Below, piece after piece: positions 41,780-63,681 of a stretch of DNA of 64,000 bases (position 1 is the stretch's first letter; every line of letters begins with the position of its first letter). Both the position numbers and the translations under genes were made by a program. The notes below the pieces were generated by a model that searched no databases, had not been told where the DNA came from, and worked only from the letters and a program-made list of their open reading frames with translations. Location: contig KI542675.1 in assembly GCA_000496135.1 (NCBI GenBank), positions 310,001 through 374,000 on the forward strand, written 5' to 3'. Source of the DNA: Thermoplasmatales archaeon E-plasma (lineage in GTDB: Archaea > Thermoplasmatota > Thermoplasmata > Thermoplasmatales > Thermoplasmataceae).

Positions 41780-43195
41780 TCATTTCTTGCTCATTTTTCT
41801 CATAACTTCAGTTACGATTAGAGCAAGAACAACCAATCCTGCTCCTGCAAATACCCCATAGAAGTAATAGACTAAACCCGGAATCTTGGTAAATGTTATG
41901 GTCTCATTGAGCTCCTCAAAATAGACTGTGATATTTCCAGTCATTTGAGAAGTCTGATACCCTGATGGAACCATTGTAATGTTGAAGCATTGGGTTCCAG
42001 TAGGTGCCAGAATACCGATGTTGCTTGAGGTGGAATTCACAAAGGTACTGCCCAGTTGAACTCCCCACTCTGTCGAGGACGGCAAACCGGATTCCTCGAA
42101 TACAACATAATACTCTGTAATATTTGCAAATGAATAGGCAGTCGAATAAGTTTGATTTCCGCTTGAACCACCGAACAATATCAGCGTTGAATTTGCTTCA
42201 TAACGTGCCATTGTTTGTCCAAAGTAGACATTGGGTTCAGCCCCTCTCAATTGAACGCTTGTCCATGTATTGGAAGATGAATTAAACTCCCAGGTTCCCT
42301 GAACAGGACCATTGGAGTTGACTCCACCAAACAGAATTGTCATATTGTCTAAAAGATAGAATTTCAATTCTCCAAAAGCTCTTGACCCAGGGTTGTTTAT
42401 TGTTCTTATTTGATTCCATGTCAAGGAACTGCTCATTACCCAGGTGGAATCAGAATAACTTGAATTATAACCACCAAACATTATGGGATAACCGGCTGAA
42501 TCATACGCCATCTCAGATCCATCCATGGAAGGCATTTTTTTACTTTCACTGGTTATGTTGATCCACTTATTCTTGTATTCCCATGTGGAATTAAGATATC
42601 CATTTGGTCCTATTCCGCCATAAAGGATTATGGCGTTCAGCGCAGGTGAATAACTCATGGCCCCGAAAGCCCGTGATGAAGGATGTATTGAAAAGTTCAA
42701 AACTGACCAGGTTTTCCCAGTGAAAATCCACGTTTGACTGAAATACGAGGTTTTGTTCATTCCGCCAAATAGTAATATGTATCCGGTAGACGGGTCATAC
42801 TGCATTGATCCTCCTATCATTGCGGGGGGTGCATTCGAGCTGGTAAGATTTGTCCAGCTTCCCGAGTAATATTGCCACGTTTGATTTAGAAATGTTGTAT
42901 TTGGGCCATTAAAAATTTCGCCACCAAATAGAATCACACCACTGGTTGTGGAACCGTATGCCATACTGGCATTAGCTCTAGGACCAGGTCCCGCTGCCGT
43001 AATTGGCGACCATTGGTTCTCGCTAACCGGGTTATTATAGTTTGTAGCAACAGCGTTCGGGTTAAATATCGCTTTCATTGAAGAGTGGTATGGCACCACT
43101 CCAATACCGAAGAATGATACCAATATCACTAAAGTTACTGATAGAGAAAGGACTCTAATGAACAAGGGTCTTCTCAAAATTTCCCTGATTGACAT
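41780..43195 (-). CDS. Kelch-repeat surface protein with one ESGLPSS module and a membrane anchor
   Basis: A secreted protein of about 471 residues. Signal helix at the N-terminus; residues about 45-340 hold about six kelch-type blades, each with a hydrophobic strand plus (I/L)LFGG and a Trp; one beta module begins with FEESGLPSSTEW near residue 365; a membrane anchor (about 445-465) and a basic tail end it. Such kelch proteins are abundant on Thermoplasmatales surfaces. ATG 43195 is preferred: an ATTTATAAAT box at 43216-43225 lies about 26 bases upstream (leaderless). A sugar-nucleotide gene follows upstream. Confidence 0.83.
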   Translation of the reverse strand: MSIREILRRPLFIRVLSLSVTLVILVSFFGIGVVPYHSSMKAIFNPNAVATNYNNPVSENQWSPITAAGPGPRANASMAYGSTTSGVILFGGEIFNGPNTTFLNQTWQYYSGSWTNLTSSNAPPAMIGGSMQYDPSTGYILLFGGMNKTSYFSQTWIFTGKTWSVLNFSIHPSSRAFGAMSYSPALNAIILYGGIGPNGYLNSTWEYKNKWINITSESKKMPSMDGSEMAYDSAGYPIMFGGYNSSYSDSTWVMSSSLTWNQIRTINNPGSRAFGELKFYLLDNMTILFGGVNSNGPVQGTWEFNSSSNTWTSVQLRGAEPNVYFGQTMARYEANSTLILFGGSSGNQTYSTAYSFANITEYYVVFEESGLPSSTEWGVQLGSTFVNSTSSNIGILAPTGTQCFNITMVPSGYQTSQMTGNITVYFEELNETITFTKIPGLVYYFYGVFAGAGLVVLALIVTEVMRKMSKK

Positions 43196-43215
43196 TACAC
43201 ACAGATTCAACGGTC

Positions 43216-49436: not shown

Positions 49437-52400
49437 ATGTCTAGGCAACCATTACAATATTCAACTTTCATAAAAATTGTTGTAATTGTAATAATAGCTA
49501 TGACTATATTTTCTTACGCTTCTTTTTTAAAGCCCAGTCAAGATTCCAATTCAAAAAAAGCTGGAACTAATTCGATTTCCATTCGCTTGGATTCTGCAGC
49601 ACAATATCCGGACAAAAGTTCTGTAAATCCATATGATTACACGGTTCAACCTGCACCGATCGGTATAGCTGATTTTGGAATTGGCGCATACGGAAAGCCC
49701 TATGAATATAATACTTCATCATTTGTTGGTTCTATAAACATTAAGAAACTCACTGCGTTTAATAGTAGCCTAGGAAGCCTTGGAGATAACAATCTAACTT
49801 TTCAGTTGAACTCTATTTTGGTGTTTGTGAATAATGGTACTCTTTATAATTACTGGATTCAGGATGTATATTATTACAATACAACAACTAGATTATTATC
49901 GATCAATAATAACATATGGAACTGGTCCAATCCGGTAGATCAAAATCTTACTTCATCCACAGTAACAGGGAATGGAACAATTTACACGGGATGTGCGCCT
50001 TCAGGTAATGTGTATATTGATTCACCTGCTGCGTCATCATTACTGCCAGGGAATTGCAAAGCTATCTCGCTCCCCAGGACGATCTCGCTGAGAATTAATT
50101 CCACTCTCGTGTCGAATGTCCCAGAGGTGATATTTCAATACAACAATGGAACATCAGGATGGGTAACTTATGATAATGCAAAATTTATTTTTGCAAAGAA
50201 TGTAGAGGCAGATTATGGTTTCGTCGTGAATGGTAATGTTTCTGCTCTCAATGGTCTATATTATGAAACAGACTTAATAGTAGGAGGTCCCGGTGACGGT
50301 ACAAAAAATATAATTACTGCCTCTAATATGACAATGAAGCTTGATTACGCCAATGGAAACAACTATCAATCAATAAATAACGCTTATGACTTTTCTGGAA
50401 ATACCGGAGAAGCTGTTTCAAACCTGACGGATGTGCTTAAGGAAAATACTACATCAGGGCAAATATGTGCTTCTTTGAATAATTCTGGATCTGGAAAGAC
50501 TGAAACAAATTATAAAACTACAACGCTATTTCAGGCAGATAATCTTTCAGCACTGGATTTTGTAAGTTCAGTGGATGATGGAACATTAATAGTTAATTCC
50601 ACGTCATACCATTTCACAGGAAACAGAATCAATTTAACACTTAAGCCAGGACCATATAATGTGCAATTGTGGCAGGGTTCGACGGAAGTTATGAGTGGAT
50701 CATATACCTTGCTGAAGGGAAATACTCTTTTAGTAATGTATAACGAATATATTGCAAACTTCTATGAAGAAAATCTCCCACCGGATACTTTCTGGAACAT
50801 TACTATTAACGGCCTGACCTATTATACGTATACAGATGCAATAGCAGTTCCACTGGCTACGGGTACTTATGCATTTAGTGTAGGAAAAATATACGGTTAC
50901 TCTGATATTACTTCCTCGGGTTCAATTAGTATTGGGAGTTCCAATGCTAGTAGTGAGATATCATTCTTTCAATCTGAAAAAGTGATTGCCGGGGCTCTTA
51001 CCATAACTGGTAATCTTGCAAGTTACGGGACTACAGCCTCTACATCTGAATATATAGTTGTTACTCCCGGTCCATCTTCGATGACAGTAAATAGAATATC
51101 TCTTATCTTTACTGGCGATGGTTCATTTGAGTTTTCCATCGGAACACAGCTTGGTAAACCAAACCTCTTGCAAAATGTCAGTGGGGGAACATATTCCTTC
51201 GGGAATAATTTTGGATGGGTTAATTTGACTTTTCCTTACACTACACTTTATGGAGGTGGTTTTTACTACCTTAACGTTTGGTTAACATCCACTTCTCCCG
51301 GCGGAACAAACGCTTTCCAGTTGGCACTTAATTATACAAAAAGTCCATTGGTATTAAACAAAAATTCGCTGAGTGGATATCTCGTTCAGACAGGCGCTAC
51401 ATATTACCTTCCCTATTTAAATCAGTATATGTTTGAATTATATTATGTGTCGTATTCTATTACTTTTACAGAATCAGGTCTCCCTTCAGGTGATATTTGG
51501 TACACGAATCTTTCAAACGATGAATCATTTACATCCTATTCTTCGTCTTTCACAATTGGCCTCAGAAACGGATCATACCAATACAACATTGCAACAAACA
51601 ACAAGATATACCATGCACCTGCATCATCATTCACAGTAAATGGAGCAGCTTTAACTGAATCGGTATCATTTTCACTTTACACATATTCAGTTACATTCTC
51701 AGAATCTGGATTACCAACAGGTGATCTCTGGTATGTGAACATAACAGGTCAAACATCATCAGGAGCAATAAATTCAGGATCAACTTATTCATTCTCATTA
51801 GCAAACGGATCATACCAATACAACATTGCAACAAACAACAAGATATACCATGCACCTGCATCATCATTCACAGTAAATGGAGCAGCTTTAACTGAATCGG
51901 TATCATTTTCACTTTACACATATTCAGTTACATTCTCAGAATCTGGATTACCAACAGGTGATCTCTGGTATGTGAACATAACAGGTCAAACATCATCAGG
52001 AGCAATCGATGCAGGATCATCATTCTCAATTGATCTCACTAACGGATCATACCAATACAACATTGCAACAAACAACAAGATATACCATGCACCTGCATCA
52101 TCATTCACAGTAAATGGAGCAGCTTTAACTGAATCGGTATCATTTTCACTTTACACATATTCAGTTACATTCTCAGAATCTGGATTACCAACAGGTGATC
52201 TCTGGTATGTGAACATAACAGGTCAAACATCATCAGGAGCAATAAATTCAGGATCAACTTATTCATTCTCATTAGCAAACGGATCATACCAATACAACAT
52301 TGCAACAAACAACAAGATATACCATGCACCTGCATCATCATTCACAGTAAATGGAGCAGCTTTAACTGAATCGGTATCATTTTCACTTTACACATATTCA

Positions 52401-53465
52401 GTTACATTCTCAGAATCTGGATTACCAACAGGTGATCTCTGGTATGTGAACATAACAGGTCAAACATCATCAGGAGCAATCGATGCAGGATCATCATTCT
52501 CAATTGATCTCACTAACGGATCATACCAATACAACATTGCAACAAACAACAAGATATACCATGCACCTGCATCATCATTCACAGTAAATGGAGCAGCTTT
52601 AACTGAATCGGTATCATTTTCACTTTACACATATTCAGTTACATTCTCAGAATCTGGATTACCAACAGGTGATCTCTGGTATGTGAACATAACAGGTCAA
52701 ACATCATCAGGAGCAATAAATTCAGGATCAACTTATTCATTCTCATTAGCAAACGGATCATACCAATACAACATTGCAACAAACAACAAGATATACCATG
52801 CACCTGCATCATCATTCACAGTAAATGGAGCAGCTTTAACTGAATCGGTATCATTTTCACTTTACACATATTCAGTTACATTCTCAGAATCTGGATTACC
52901 AACAGGTGATCTCTGGTATGTGAACATAACAGGTCAAACATCATCAGGAGCAATCGATGCAGGATCATCATTCTCAATTGATCTCACTAACGGATCATAC
53001 CAATACAACATTGCAACAAACAACAAGATATACCATGCACCTGCATCATCATTCACAGTAAATGGAGCAGCTTTAACTGAATCGGTATCATTTTCACTTT
53101 ACACATATTCAGTTACATTCTCAGAATCAGGCCTTCCATCAACCGATCTCTGGTATGTGAACATAACAGGTCAAACATCATCAGGAGCAATCGATGCAGG
53201 ATCATCATTCTCAATTGATCTCACTAACGGATCATATAAATATGTTGTTAATTCGAGTGAGGCTGGATATGTTGTAATTCAAGATTCAACGCAATTCAGT
53301 ATTAATGGTAGAGCAAAGACAATGAATATAGATTTTGTAGGAACTGGTGGAAAAGTAAAGGTAAACTTTTTGTGGTTTTATTTTCTTATAGGTGCTATTG
53401 GATTAATAGCCATTCTAATATTAATATCTCATAGAAAAAAATTGAGCATATTTGGTGTTCGATGA
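49437..53465 (+). CDS. Giant tandem-repeat surface protein (nine ESGLPSG-type modules)
   Basis: A 1342-residue membrane-anchored exoprotein. Signal helix at about residues 12-32; a large beta N-domain to about 440; a divergent module from about 442; a jelly-roll-like domain at about 520-675; then eight further modules of about 79 residues with TFSESGLPTGDLWYVNITGQ; a C-terminal anchor (about 1307-1330) ends in a basic tail. Copies within 51567-53237 are nearly identical in DNA. Sequons are abundant. A TATA-like AATATAAAA at about 49397-49405 lies about 36 bases upstream. It is probably a stalk or adhesin; exact function is unknown. Confidence 0.88.
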   Translation: MSRQPLQYSTFIKIVVIVIIAMTIFSYASFLKPSQDSNSKKAGTNSISIRLDSAAQYPDKSSVNPYDYTVQPAPIGIADFGIGAYGKPYEYNTSSFVGSINIKKLTAFNSSLGSLGDNNLTFQLNSILVFVNNGTLYNYWIQDVYYYNTTTRLLSINNNIWNWSNPVDQNLTSSTVTGNGTIYTGCAPSGNVYIDSPAASSLLPGNCKAISLPRTISLRINSTLVSNVPEVIFQYNNGTSGWVTYDNAKFIFAKNVEADYGFVVNGNVSALNGLYYETDLIVGGPGDGTKNIITASNMTMKLDYANGNNYQSINNAYDFSGNTGEAVSNLTDVLKENTTSGQICASLNNSGSGKTETNYKTTTLFQADNLSALDFVSSVDDGTLIVNSTSYHFTGNRINLTLKPGPYNVQLWQGSTEVMSGSYTLLKGNTLLVMYNEYIANFYEENLPPDTFWNITINGLTYYTYTDAIAVPLATGTYAFSVGKIYGYSDITSSGSISIGSSNASSEISFFQSEKVIAGALTITGNLASYGTTASTSEYIVVTPGPSSMTVNRISLIFTGDGSFEFSIGTQLGKPNLLQNVSGGTYSFGNNFGWVNLTFPYTTLYGGGFYYLNVWLTSTSPGGTNAFQLALNYTKSPLVLNKNSLSGYLVQTGATYYLPYLNQYMFELYYVSYSITFTESGLPSGDIWYTNLSNDESFTSYSSSFTIGLRNGSYQYNIATNNKIYHAPASSFTVNGAALTESVSFSLYTYSVTFSESGLPTGDLWYVNITGQTSSGAINSGSTYSFSLANGSYQYNIATNNKIYHAPASSFTVNGAALTESVSFSLYTYSVTFSESGLPTGDLWYVNITGQTSSGAIDAGSSFSIDLTNGSYQYNIATNNKIYHAPASSFTVNGAALTESVSFSLYTYSVTFSESGLPTGDLWYVNITGQTSSGAINSGSTYSFSLANGSYQYNIATNNKIYHAPASSFTVNGAALTESVSFSLYTYSVTFSESGLPTGDLWYVNITGQTSSGAIDAGSSFSIDLTNGSYQYNIATNNKIYHAPASSFTVNGAALTESVSFSLYTYSVTFSESGLPTGDLWYVNITGQTSSGAINSGSTYSFSLANGSYQYNIATNNKIYHAPASSFTVNGAALTESVSFSLYTYSVTFSESGLPTGDLWYVNITGQTSSGAIDAGSSFSIDLTNGSYQYNIATNNKIYHAPASSFTVNGAALTESVSFSLYTYSVTFSESGLPSTDLWYVNITGQTSSGAIDAGSSFSIDLTNGSYKYVVNSSEAGYVVIQDSTQFSINGRAKTMNIDFVGTGGKVKVNFLWFYFLIGAIGLIAILILISHRKKLSIFGVR
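51567..53237 (+). repeat. 237-bp tandem array in the giant surface-protein gene
   Basis: Six whole units start at 51681, 51918, 52155, 52392, 52629 and 52866, each 237 bp (79 codons), with partial units on both sides. Most of each unit is identical. A 35-40-base cassette alternates strictly between type A (AATTCAGGATCAACT) and type B (GATGCAGGATCATCA), giving a 474-bp higher-order period. Confidence 0.95.
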
Positions 53466-60137: not shown

Positions 60138-60159
60138 TCCATGAGTACCATTGTCTAGC

Positions 60160-63100
60160 ATGAATAAGCAATTTGCTATATTAGTATTGATTATCATGGT
60201 CCTGGGGGCGTTTGTCACGCTAGCCGGGAACAGCAATGCGCAGAATGTGCCATCTATGCAATCCCAAACAACAGGGATGGTTTCACTTTCTGCAGGGACT
60301 AACCACGTACTTAACAACATGAATGGCATAACAAGAATAGGAAATGTGTATGAGAAACAGTTATCAGTAATGATAACACTTAAGTTTAGAAATCAGGCCC
60401 AATTAAACAGCCTTTTAGCTAACTTGCAAAATACGAATTCTCCAATGTACCATAAATATTTGACATCTCAGGAATTCATAAATGAATTTTCACCTTCTGC
60501 AAGTGTCTATAACAGCATGGTAACTTACTATAAAGCGCTGGGATTTTCAGTTAAAACATACAATGACAGAACCTCTTTCGTTCTTGGTGGAAGCGTCTTA
60601 CAATTCAACAATGTCTTCCATGCTGGAATTCAGTTATTCGAAAAAGGTAGCTATCAATTCACGGCACCAACAACATCGGCAATGATACCTGCGCAATTCG
60701 CATCTCAGGTTATAAACATTGCAGGTATGAATAATGAACATCTGGCAACATTGAATCTGGTGAACCCAAATCCTCTGTTTACAACTTCATCTGGAAGCCA
60801 GTTATTATACGGTTCAGATATGCAGAATGCATATCAGCTTAGCCAGTTATACAGTAAATATGGATACCCAACAAACGAAACAATAGCAACAATCCTGTGG
60901 TCTGGAACTAACAGCGCAGGGGCATCTGTCGCGCCGTTTGTACCATCGGATATCTATAGCTACTTTAATAAGACGTTACCAGCAGGTGAGCCTCACTCTT
61001 CTGTATACGGGGCTCCACTTGGAGGAGCACCAGCACCTGGTCCATCCGCAGCAAACGATAACACCCAGGCTGATTTTGAGAGTACTCTTGATCTGGAAAT
61101 GGCAGGATCCGCTGCACCAGGAGCAACAGTGGTTGAAGTTTACGGACCACAGGCAACACAGACTTACCTTGACCAGGCTTTCTCATTTATATTGAGTCCT
61201 AGCTCTTCTTACCCACAGCTAACACACACAGTTGCAATATCTAACTCATGGGGAGGAACTGATATGACTGATGCAACATGGACATCAGATCTTCAACAGG
61301 CTGCAGCAATGGGAATATCTGTTTTCGCATCATCAGGTGATGATGGAAATTCTGGAACATCCGGAGCAGCACCAAGTTTCCCGGCAACGGCATCATATAA
61401 CACCTACGGAGCAACAGCAGTTGGTGGATTAACCACAACAGTATCTGGAACTGCATCAACAGATGGCAGTGGCACAACAGGTATATCGACAGAATCCGTT
61501 TGGTATAATACGCCTAATTCCGGTGACGGTTCACAGGGAGGAGTCAGTACAGTTTATGCGGAACCATCATGGCAGAAGGCAAGTTCTGATGCAAATTCAG
61601 TAATTACTGGGGCATCTGCAACAACAGGAGTTAGCTCAGGAAGAGGAACCCCGGATGTAGCAGCAGATGGAGCCAATATGGAAATCTGGATTTCCTACAG
61701 TGGAAGCACTGGCTACCAGGAACTCTGGGGAACGAGTATTGCATCACCTTTAACAGCAGGATTATTTGCAACGATGGATTATGCAGTTGGACACAAACTT
61801 GGGTTTGCAAATCCACTTATATACCAGCTTGCACAAGCTGAATATAACGGTTCGTACAGTTCCAGCAGGCCATTCTACTTTGTATCCAATGGATCAAATG
61901 CTCTATTTAGTGCTAATAATGGATACAGTCTGGCAGTAGGATGGGGGTCAATCAACGCAAATAACTTTGTAAATGACATAACATCATCCTCACCGACAAG
62001 CTATCCAGTAACATTCACTGAATCAGGATTACCATCCGGTACATCATGGTCAGTGACATTCAACGGACAGACATCATCCTCAACATCAACAACAGTTTCA
62101 TTCAGCGCAGTTGACGGAACATACTCCTACACAATAGGTGCAGTCTCAGGTTACACATCCTCACCATCAAGCGGATCAGTAACTGTAAACGGAGCATCGG
62201 CAGGAGTAAGCGTAACATTCACAGCGTCATCAACGCCGCCACCAACACAGACAGCTGCTACATATTCTATTGTAAATGCAACCTCATCTAACATTAATCT
62301 GTACACATTACCTGAAGCTGAGAAATTCACAGTTTCCAACACGGTTACTGTGAACAATGTAGTTCTTTACCTTGGTGGATCCGGAACAGTATCGTTCTCC
62401 ATAGGAACATCCTTCCAGGGTACTCAGGTATTGGGAGCAACAAATGTAGTTGTTGGATCTACAATAGGCTGGTATAGCACAACATTCGCAAATGTAACAC
62501 TTTCAGCAGGCACGGACTACTTCCTTAACGTAAACCTTGTCTCAGGAAGCACACAGTGGGGATACACCTCTTCAACTTCAACATCAGTTGACACAGGAGC
62601 ATTACAGGACTATTGGTACAGTGGATCAACGCTGACTCATGACAACTCATATCCTGATATATATTCAGTTGGGTATGTGCCTGTTTCATCCTCACCGACA
62701 AGCTATCCAGTAACATTCACTGAATCAGGATTACCATCCGGTACATCATGGTCAGTGACATTCAACGGACAGACATCATCCTCAACATCAACAACAGTTT
62801 CATTCAGCGCAGTTGACGGAACATACTCCTACACAATAGGTGCAGTCTCAGGTTACACATCCTCACCATCAAGCGGATCAGTAACTGTAAACGGAGCATC
62901 AGCAGGAGTTAACATAGCGTTCACACAGGATAAGTATCCAGTAACATTCACTGAATCAGGATTACCATCCGGTACATCATGGTCAGTGACATTCAACGGA
63001 CAGACATCATCCTCAACATCAACAACAGTTTCATTCAGCGCAGTTGACGGAACATACTCCTACACAATAGGTGCAGTCTCAGGTTACACATCCTCACCAT

Positions 63101-63681
63101 CAAGCGGATCAGTAACTGTAAACGGAGCATCGGCAGGAGTTAGCATAGCCTTCTCGGCTACAACAACCAGCTACCCGGTGGGAACCTATGTTATAGTAAA
63201 TGCAACTTCGTCGAATATCTATCTTTACACATTACCTGAAGCTGAGAAATTCACAGTTTCCAACACGGTTACTGTAAACAATGTTGTTCTATATCTGGGA
63301 GGTGGATCCGGTAAGGTTTCATTCTCAATAGGAACATCACGTGGAGGATCTCAAACGCTGGGAACTACAGATGTTACAGTAGGTTCTTCAACAGGTTGGG
63401 TTAAAGTATTCTTCAATGATGTTACCTTAACAGCAGGCACGGACTACTTCCTTAACGTAAACCTTGTCTCAGGAAGCACACAGTGGGGATACACCTCTTC
63501 ACCATCAGTTGACACAGGAGCATTACAGGACTTCTGGTACAGTGGATCAACGCTGTATCATGACAACTCATATCCTGATATATTCTCCATTGGCTATAAC
63601 ACACAATCAACAGCAGCAATACTGGGTCAGATGTTCTCTGACAACACAATGTCAGGCGTCAGCTTACCAAACATTTTTTAA
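60160..63681 (+). CDS. Large secreted S53 (sedolisin/kumamolisin-like) protease with C-terminal beta modules
   Basis: A secreted serine-carboxyl protease of 1173 residues from ATG 60160. Signal peptide (about 1-28), pro-kumamolisin activation domain (about 40-190), and the S53 catalytic domain (about 210-610): E307 and D311 (DFESTLD), oxyanion Asp394 (SSGDDG) and nucleophile Ser526 (GTSIASP). The remainder carries three near-identical FTESGLPSGTSW modules and two copies of a jelly-roll-like beta domain. Sedolisins work at acid pH, fitting an acidophile. No C-terminal anchor is seen, so it may be released or bound by other means. Confidence 0.93.
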   Translation: MNKQFAILVLIIMVLGAFVTLAGNSNAQNVPSMQSQTTGMVSLSAGTNHVLNNMNGITRIGNVYEKQLSVMITLKFRNQAQLNSLLANLQNTNSPMYHKYLTSQEFINEFSPSASVYNSMVTYYKALGFSVKTYNDRTSFVLGGSVLQFNNVFHAGIQLFEKGSYQFTAPTTSAMIPAQFASQVINIAGMNNEHLATLNLVNPNPLFTTSSGSQLLYGSDMQNAYQLSQLYSKYGYPTNETIATILWSGTNSAGASVAPFVPSDIYSYFNKTLPAGEPHSSVYGAPLGGAPAPGPSAANDNTQADFESTLDLEMAGSAAPGATVVEVYGPQATQTYLDQAFSFILSPSSSYPQLTHTVAISNSWGGTDMTDATWTSDLQQAAAMGISVFASSGDDGNSGTSGAAPSFPATASYNTYGATAVGGLTTTVSGTASTDGSGTTGISTESVWYNTPNSGDGSQGGVSTVYAEPSWQKASSDANSVITGASATTGVSSGRGTPDVAADGANMEIWISYSGSTGYQELWGTSIASPLTAGLFATMDYAVGHKLGFANPLIYQLAQAEYNGSYSSSRPFYFVSNGSNALFSANNGYSLAVGWGSINANNFVNDITSSSPTSYPVTFTESGLPSGTSWSVTFNGQTSSSTSTTVSFSAVDGTYSYTIGAVSGYTSSPSSGSVTVNGASAGVSVTFTASSTPPPTQTAATYSIVNATSSNINLYTLPEAEKFTVSNTVTVNNVVLYLGGSGTVSFSIGTSFQGTQVLGATNVVVGSTIGWYSTTFANVTLSAGTDYFLNVNLVSGSTQWGYTSSTSTSVDTGALQDYWYSGSTLTHDNSYPDIYSVGYVPVSSSPTSYPVTFTESGLPSGTSWSVTFNGQTSSSTSTTVSFSAVDGTYSYTIGAVSGYTSSPSSGSVTVNGASAGVNIAFTQDKYPVTFTESGLPSGTSWSVTFNGQTSSSTSTTVSFSAVDGTYSYTIGAVSGYTSSPSSGSVTVNGASAGVSIAFSATTTSYPVGTYVIVNATSSNIYLYTLPEAEKFTVSNTVTVNNVVLYLGGGSGKVSFSIGTSRGGSQTLGTTDVTVGSSTGWVKVFFNDVTLTAGTDYFLNVNLVSGSTQWGYTSSPSVDTGALQDFWYSGSTLYHDNSYPDIFSIGYNTQSTAAILGQMFSDNTMSGVSLPNIF
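62002..62207 (+). repeat. Module repeat copy 1 in the S53 gene
   Basis: First of three nearly identical 206-base DNA copies encoding the FTESGLPSGTSW module. The other copies are at 62704-62909 and 62935-63140. Confidence 0.9.
62704..62909 (+). repeat. Module repeat copy 2 in the S53 gene
   Basis: Second of three 206-base copies, differing from copy 1 at about two bases near its end (AGC for CGG). It is separated by 25 bases from copy 3. Confidence 0.9.
62935..63140 (+). repeat. Module repeat copy 3 in the S53 gene
   Basis: Third copy, closely matching the other two. Confidence 0.9.

What the first reader, a model, noticed from the sequence alone, without database searches (positions are those of the whole stretch)
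49437..53465. Giant surface protein has a nearly perfect 237-bp array with strictly alternating cassettes
Seen: six full units of 237 bp identical over most of their length, with a short A or B cassette alternating, so the real period is 474 bp. The identity extends to silent positions. Inference: recent expansion by unequal recombination of a two-module unit, and a likely length-variable stalk or adhesin. It is also a place where short-read assemblies would collapse.
Basis: seen in the sequence. Interest (0 to 1): 0.72.

Follow-up and report, generated by a model that had tools for sequence, protein, structure and literature searches.

The report
Archaeal protease stalk with copied modules
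An acid-loving archaeon carries a membrane-anchored thermopsin-type protein held out on a stalk of near-identical building blocks that were copied very recently, so the stalk's true length is uncertain and may vary.

Summary
Window 51684-53105 holds six 237-bp units in the order A-B-A-B-A-B. The three A units are identical to each other, as are the three B units. A and B differ at 16 positions, all inside one 34-bp block. Beyond the first report: the flanking modules are diverged, the alternation ends B-B at the 3' end, and the protein is a thermopsin-family (PF05317) ectodomain on a stalk of transthyretin/CnaB-like beta-sandwich modules with a C-terminal membrane anchor. 'Adhesin' has no support.

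Recent local copying is well supported. Such module arrays are common in relatives, but near-identical copies are rare: 4 of 44 multi-module ORFs surveyed. Two more genes of this genome show recent module duplication. The neighbouring sedolisin gene has three modules here and two in a sister species. Module tracts look shared between different surface genes by ectopic recombination.

Population-level length variation is untested. The only close orthologue, from a short-read MAG, stops at the array edge, so the copy number is that of one assembly.

Verdict: new variant of a known kind, a thermopsin-plus-Ig-stalk protein with a Periscope-like array.

The parts
49437..53465 (+). Whole gene, 1342 aa: thermopsin head, diverged module, middle domain, eight-module stalk, C-terminal membrane anchor
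   Evidence: ORF; Pfam; hydropathy
49449..49538 (+). N-terminal hydrophobic segment (signal peptide or signal anchor), about aa 5-34
   Evidence: 19-residue hydropathy above 1.6 from aa 5-16 starts; cleavage not tested
49620..50426 (+). Thermopsin (peptidase A5) domain, aa 62-330
   Evidence: PF05317 E 2.3e-76, 257 bits against a cut-off of 25
50748..50984 (+). Diverged stalk-type module upstream of the array
   Evidence: HMM hit; alignment A1, 21% identity to the B unit
50985..51440 (+). Middle domain, also present in the neighbouring sedolisin gene
   Evidence: alignment A3, 32% identity to the sedolisin rows; its fold prediction failed, pLDDT 44
51447..51683 (+). First stalk module (third cassette type; 3' half identical to the array)
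51684..51920 (+). Unit A1
51921..52157 (+). Unit B1
52158..52394 (+). Unit A2
52395..52631 (+). Unit B2
52632..52868 (+). Unit A3
52869..53105 (+). Unit B3
51770..51803 (+). Cassette block of unit A1 (unit positions 87-120), the only part where A and B differ; recurs every 237 bp
   Evidence: 16 differences, all in this block; loop plus strand 34-38 in the model
53106..53336 (+). Last module: B cassette, diverged 3' half
53355..53438 (+). C-terminal membrane segment followed by a short basic tail
   Evidence: hydropathy above 1.6 from aa 1307-1316 starts
60151..63681 (+). Neighbouring sedolisin-type gene with three modules of the same family (62002-62223, 62704-62925, 62935-63159)
   Evidence: Pro-kumamolisin activation domain E 1e-20; module identity 97-98%

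Best explanation
The gene encodes a membrane-tethered thermopsin-family protein. Its N-terminal A5 domain is carried away from the membrane by a row of transthyretin/CnaB-like beta-sandwich modules. The stalk grew recently by duplication of a 474-bp two-module unit, giving three identical AB pairs in this assembly, most simply by unequal recombination between repeats. Modules and parts of modules have also been exchanged between different surface-protein genes of the lineage by ectopic gene conversion. Most likely use: to place the head at a set distance from the cell surface, with module number as an easily changed length setting, as in bacterial Periscope Proteins. Shown here: the array, its identity, the domain order, the predicted fold, the rarity of such identity, and a module-number difference between species in the neighbouring gene. 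Inferred: the recombination mechanism, surface display, the spacing role, length variation in populations, and proteolytic activity (three of five candidate aspartates from the literature are replaced).
For: PF05317 at 2.3e-76. Exact 474-bp periodicity. Two-module model with pLDDT 91.7, all beta; best single-domain matches are the transthyretin-like domain of carboxypeptidase D (5aq0, Z 9.1, rmsd 2.5 over 74 residues) and, among others, a CnaB2 domain (8bdw, Z 8.1, rmsd 2.4 over 77); the Sulfolobus S-layer stalk protein SlaB (8qox) is listed at Z 7.3. Terminal hydrophobic segments and two N-glycosylation sequons per full unit. Near-identical modules in only 4 of 44 multi-module ORFs, three of them in this genome. 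Sedolisin modules: dS 0.05 within this genome, 0.21 within G001, 0.39-0.45 between the two; three modules against two. Mosaic tracts: module p3 of a propeller gene in G003 matches the array at 77 of 78 positions in its first 78 columns, where it matches its own gene's p1 at 55 of 78, while p1 and p3 agree at 150 of 159 positions after that. Empty site between the flanking genes in G001 and G002.
Against: No second complete array was found, so copy-number change of this array is not shown. Assembly or polishing could have altered the copy number or made copies alike; the reads were not available. Synonymous change is slow in these modules in the sedolisin (0.39-0.45 against 1.66 in the catalytic part), so low divergence may overstate recency. 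Of five candidate aspartates named in PMC3842238, the motif positions corresponding to Asp144, Asp257 and Asp302 read N, E and N here, so activity is doubtful. Of the five pairs tested for mosaicism, B-p3 (3369 of 5000 permutations) and B-p1 (614 of 5000) were not significant.
Confidence: 0.66

Rival explanations
1. Structural surface protein rather than a working protease: the thermopsin domain serves as a docking or lattice-binding head, as with Saci1846, a thermopsin-family membrane protein with Ig-like domains that helps to anchor the Sulfolobus S-layer.
For: Same parts (signal, thermopsin family, Ig-like domains, C-terminal membrane helix) described for Saci1846 in PMC12207459, section 6. 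SlaB appears among the structural matches. Three of five candidate aspartates are replaced in the window protein and its orthologue.
Against: Cultured relatives in Cuniculiplasmataceae lack an S-layer by electron microscopy (PMC5155288, passages); whether this organism has one is unknown. The true active site of thermopsin is not known (PMC3842238), so replacement of candidates does not prove inactivity.
Confidence: 0.35
2. The perfect identity or the number of copies is partly an assembly or polishing product, and the real array is shorter, longer or less uniform.
For: Identical 474-bp copies cannot be ordered by short reads (inference). The orthologue's contig in G003 stops at the array edge and a G002 contig starts inside a sedolisin module.
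Against: The window lies inside a 911-kb contig of an 8-contig assembly. Flanking modules carry distinct cassettes and join without a frame break. The neighbouring sedolisin and a propeller gene show similar recent duplications.
Confidence: 0.15
3. Strict A-B alternation is kept by selection (for example to keep neighbouring identical modules from misfolding together) rather than being a by-product of copying a two-module unit.
For: A and B share 203 identical bases yet keep different cassettes, and single-unit (237-bp) exchanges would be expected to leave A-A or B-B pairs (reasoned). High identity between neighbouring domains is said to be disfavoured (PMC8201768, passages).
Against: Two duplications of one AB unit explain the order without selection. 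The run itself ends B-B'. A and B proteins are 91% identical, so alternation would do little against misfolding.
Confidence: 0.15
4. Adhesin with a ligand-binding head.
For: CnaB-like modules occur in bacterial adhesins and pilins (structural matches).
Against: The head is a thermopsin domain and no known binding domain was found.
Confidence: 0.08

Closest known systems
Saci1846 / M164_1049 type thermopsin-family membrane proteins of Sulfolobales
   Same: Thermopsin family, Ig-like domains, N-terminal signal, C-terminal membrane helix (PMC12207459, section 6 read)
   Different: Three Ig-like domains there, against eight array modules plus one diverged module here; no near-identical array is described in the section read; the modules were not aligned to Saci1846 here
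Periscope Proteins (SasG, Rib, Sgo0707; bacterial)
   Same: Functional head on a stalk of tandem modules with very high DNA identity that should promote intragenic recombination (PMC8201768 and PMC9704523, passages)
   Different: Archaeal, thermopsin head, membrane helix as anchor, two alternating module versions; variation between strains not shown
Thermopsin, peptidase family A5
   Same: PF05317 over nearly the full profile; the QDV motif (Asp129) and the YD motif (Asp228) are kept
   Different: Three of five candidate aspartates replaced; long C-terminal stalk
Transthyretin-like / CnaB beta-sandwich domains
   Same: Predicted fold
   Different: No sequence match in Pfam above cut-off or in PDB sequences below E 0.07; isopeptide bonds not examined

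Membership tests
Thermopsin family A5 | Match to PF05317 over its curated cut-off | tested here: met
   257 bits against 25, profile positions 2-256 of 256
Thermopsin family A5 | Proteolytic activity at low pH | not testable with these tools
   active site unknown in the literature
Thermopsin family A5 | Candidate aspartates Asp129, 144, 228, 257, 302 kept (well but not absolutely conserved in the family) | tested here: inconclusive
   by motif, 2 of 5 kept (129, 228) and 3 replaced by N, E, N in both the window protein and the G003 orthologue; numbering mapped by motif, not by alignment to S. acidocaldarius thermopsin
Periscope Proteins | Tandem individually folding domains with very high DNA identity forming a stalk | tested here: met
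   exact 474-bp periodicity; two-module model pLDDT 91.7. The rod shape itself was not measured
Periscope Proteins | Repeat number varies between strains | not tested
   one genome per species is held; the orthologue's contig ends at the array. A three-against-two difference between species is seen only in the neighbouring sedolisin
Periscope Proteins | Attached to the cell surface, head distal | tested here: inconclusive
   terminal hydrophobic segments by hydropathy; no experiment
Saci1846-type S-layer anchor | Thermopsin family plus Ig-like domains plus C-terminal membrane helix | tested here: met
Saci1846-type S-layer anchor | Holds an S-layer | not testable with these tools
   presence of an S-layer in this organism unknown
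CnaB / transthyretin-like domain | Fold similarity | tested here: met
   Z 9.1 and 8.1 over 74-77 residues; moderate values, so a shared fold rather than proven descent
CnaB / transthyretin-like domain | Match to a curated sequence family | tested here: not met
   no Pfam family over its cut-off for the AB pair or the sedolisin modules

The most novel reading that the evidence does not exclude
Surface proteins of these acidophilic archaea (thermopsins, sedolisins, beta-propeller proteins) draw on a shared, recombining pool of stalk modules. Tracts move between genes, and perhaps between species, and local arrays expand in two-module steps. The lineage could thereby retune the reach of its surface enzymes quickly, an archaeal counterpart of Periscope Proteins with cross-gene module traffic.
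Probability: 0.3. Interest if true: 0.62.

Novelty: new variant of a known kind. Interest (0 to 1): 0.4.

Why it matters
If the stalk length varies, it would extend the Periscope idea to archaea and to a protein with an enzyme-family head, in a group where some cultured members lack an S-layer (PMC5155288, passages). It also marks a class of genes that short-read MAGs of this group can break or shorten, so counts of surface proteases and stalk lengths from such MAGs should be distrusted. The stalk module itself matches no Pfam family over its cut-off although it occurs in 34 of 35 family genomes searched.

Tried and rejected
Adhesin or lectin head: rejected, because the head is thermopsin. The other Pfam and NCBIfam hits on the stalk (X25, Gal-bind_lectin, MtxRegRemB and others) are short partial matches over the array and were set aside.

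General property of the module family: rejected. Most arrays have adjacent modules 51-73% alike; at least one pair of 95% or more occurs in 4 of 44 distinct ORFs with two or more modules (50 ORFs and 234 modules listed; 5 single-module ORFs dropped, and L104, the same gene as window 24432, counted once). The 20 relative regions were chosen by me from strong hits, not at random, and identity there ignores gap columns, which overstates A-B identity (97% there; 16 differences in 237 ungapped).

Transfer of a module between species after the split: kept only as a possibility. B against p3 has dS 0.19, while the orthologous thermopsin part has dS 0.71, with a minimum of 0.46 over 589 windows of 79 codons, and best-matching modules of another orthologous thermopsin pair (L093/L114, five modules) give 0.53-3.3. 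Against it: sedolisin modules also show low dS between species (0.39-0.45) next to 1.66 in their catalytic part, so slow synonymous change in this module type may suffice.

Relatives in viral contigs: none of 28 pattern matches was confirmed. Fold of the middle region: failed, pLDDT 44, not used. PDB sequence search: nothing for the whole protein; for the module only weak GH11 xylanase matches, E 0.075 or worse, taken as chance. Literature: no paper holds the string SGLPSGT. Searches on thermopsin, surface repeats and Periscope terms listed no title on a near-identical repeat array in a thermopsin; that is a statement about this library's listings only. PMC2447325 (archaeal surface repeats) was opened, but only its short held text was searched and gave nothing of use.
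Full report
WHAT IS THERE. The array is as described. Six 237-bp units run from 51684 to 53105 in the order A-B-A-B-A-B. Copies of one kind are identical; A and B differ at 16 positions, all within unit positions 87-120; a 474-bp shift matches exactly over 1088 bp (TRF row). The cassette block changes 7 of 12 residues at once (read from the translations), which looks like a swapped tract rather than scattered mutation. Two flanking modules complete the run. The first (51447-51683) has a third cassette and an array-type 3' half. The last (53106-53336) has a B cassette and a diverged 3' half, so the full order is C-A-B-A-B-A-B-B'.

THE PROTEIN. The ORF 49437-53465 encodes 1342 aa. Residues 62-330 match Thermopsin, PF05317, at E 2.3e-76. 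A hydrophobic segment lies at the N-terminus and another at about aa 1307-1334, followed by a short basic tail. Between head and array lie a diverged module (50748-50984) and a middle domain that also occurs in the sedolisin gene 7 kb downstream. The AB pair was modelled with pLDDT 91.7 from eight window sequences. Its matches are transthyretin-like and CnaB-type domains (5aq0 Z 9.1; 8bdw Z 8.1) and, lower, the Sulfolobus S-layer stalk protein SlaB (8qox, Z 7.3, rmsd 2.6 over 76 residues). In the model the cassette (residues 29-40) covers a loop and the strand at 34-38. Each full unit has two N-glycosylation sequons and no cysteine.

HOW COMMON THE MODULE IS. The own genome has 50 matches to the B unit at E up to 0.01 and five thermopsin domains. 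In the family 34 of 35 genomes at 90% completeness or more have the module. Over the phylum 28 of 196 sampled genomes do, 20 of them in the own family and 6 in one other family of the class. Heads differ: thermopsin, pro-kumamolisin/sedolisin and beta-propeller proteins. Near identity is the exception: 4 of 44 distinct ORFs with two or more modules have any pair at 95% or more, and three of those four are in this genome: this gene, the sedolisin at 60151-63681, and a propeller-type gene at C3:575k with a 299-bp exact run at a 246-bp shift.

RECENCY. With about 118 synonymous sites per 474 bp and no difference among three copies, the 95% upper bound is about 0.017 pairwise dS, against 0.71 for the orthologous part between this genome and G003. 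The bound is soft: modules of this type may change slowly at silent sites (below), homogenisation may be continuing, and polishing cannot be excluded.

COMPARISON WITH SISTERS. Three other genomes of the genus are held. G003, which by its identical contig is MAG Thermoplasmata archaeon YP3.bin100, has the orthologue at 92% aa over residues 1-668. Its 6275-base contig ends at the array edge, about window 51554, and the 3' part was not found in G003. In G002 the two flanking genes are 429 bp apart with no thermopsin between them and a 72-aa Mutator transposase remnant. In G001 they nearly touch (sequence printed). So the gene was most simply gained in the ancestor of this species and G003, though loss elsewhere is possible.

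MODULE TRAFFIC. Outside its own gene the closest module found is p3 in a propeller gene of G003 (89.9% identity). p3 is mosaic. In alignment columns 1-78 it matches the array at 77 of 78 and its own neighbour p1 at 55 of 78; in the rest it matches p1 at 150 of 159. The longest similar p1-p3 segment was reached in 4 of 5000 codon permutations. In the own genome, a module of a 1288-aa propeller gene matches the array at 59 of 63 in columns 121-183 but 52 of 78 in columns 1-78 (18 of 5000 permutations for A, 21 of 5000 for B), with a 32-bp exact stretch. Five pairs were tested; B-p3 and B-p1 were not significant. The tract borders were set by eye after seeing the alignment. I read this as ectopic gene conversion among surface genes. 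Whether it crossed species after the split is open: dS B-p3 is 0.19 against 0.71 for the orthologue and a minimum of 0.46 over 589 windows, but sedolisin modules also show low dS between species (0.39-0.45) beside 1.66 in the catalytic part.

THE NEIGHBOUR AS A CONTROL. The sedolisin gene shows the same process in a case where both species are readable. Modules within this genome differ by dS 0.05, within G001 by 0.21, and between the two by 0.39-0.45. There are three modules here and two in G001. Within-species likeness together with a changed module number is what concerted evolution with gain or loss of a module would leave.

HOW IT PROBABLY WORKS. The head is held away from the membrane by the modules. 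With about 4 nm per module (recalled, not measured) eight modules would span about 30 nm, near the 37 nm reported between membrane and S-layer in Sulfolobus. Whether the head cuts proteins is uncertain. Rawlings (PMC3842238; passages and section 12) names five candidate aspartates and says the active site is unknown. By motif, the window protein and its orthologue keep two and replace three. The structural reading, after Saci1846 (PMC12207459, section 6), is therefore a serious rival.

KNOWN KINDS. The architecture resembles Saci1846-type proteins; the array resembles Periscope Proteins (PMC8201768, PMC9704523; passages). Strain variation, which defines the latter, could not be tested. I therefore call it Periscope-like and not a member. 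Novelty: a new variant of a known kind. Interest is moderate.

Noticed in passing
window 60151-63681; L177: Sedolisin-type gene with three near-identical modules here and two in sister genome G001; within-genome likeness exceeds between-genome likeness.
   Followed up: yes
L101 1193-2494 (G000 C3:573500-577500): Propeller-type ORF with a 299-bp exact run at a 246-bp shift: a third recent module duplication in this genome.
   Followed up: partly
L117 10145-10360: Mutator-family transposase remnant (PF00872, E 7e-6) in G002 at the site where the thermopsin gene stands in the window.
   Followed up: partly
window 49437-50470: Three of five candidate catalytic aspartates of thermopsins are replaced (N, E, N by motif) in this protein and its G003 orthologue.
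   Followed up: partly
window 51450-53336: Serine codon TCA makes up 97 of 129 serines in the modules of this gene against 18 of 66 outside them; over the other module genes examined in the genome the excess is milder (371 of 888 against 362 of 1125).
   Followed up: partly
G002:C161:859-4314 (L044, L048): One 1561-aa open frame in G002 holds two thermopsin-like stretches in tandem.
   Followed up: no
window 51684-52157 and 62701-63159: The stalk module, common in the family, matches no Pfam family over its cut-off.
   Followed up: partly
window 41783-43213 (- strand): A 477-residue open frame with one copy of the module near its C-terminal end (one search prints it in reverse-strand coordinates); a similar ORF lies at L117 2554-3987 in G002.
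   Followed up: no
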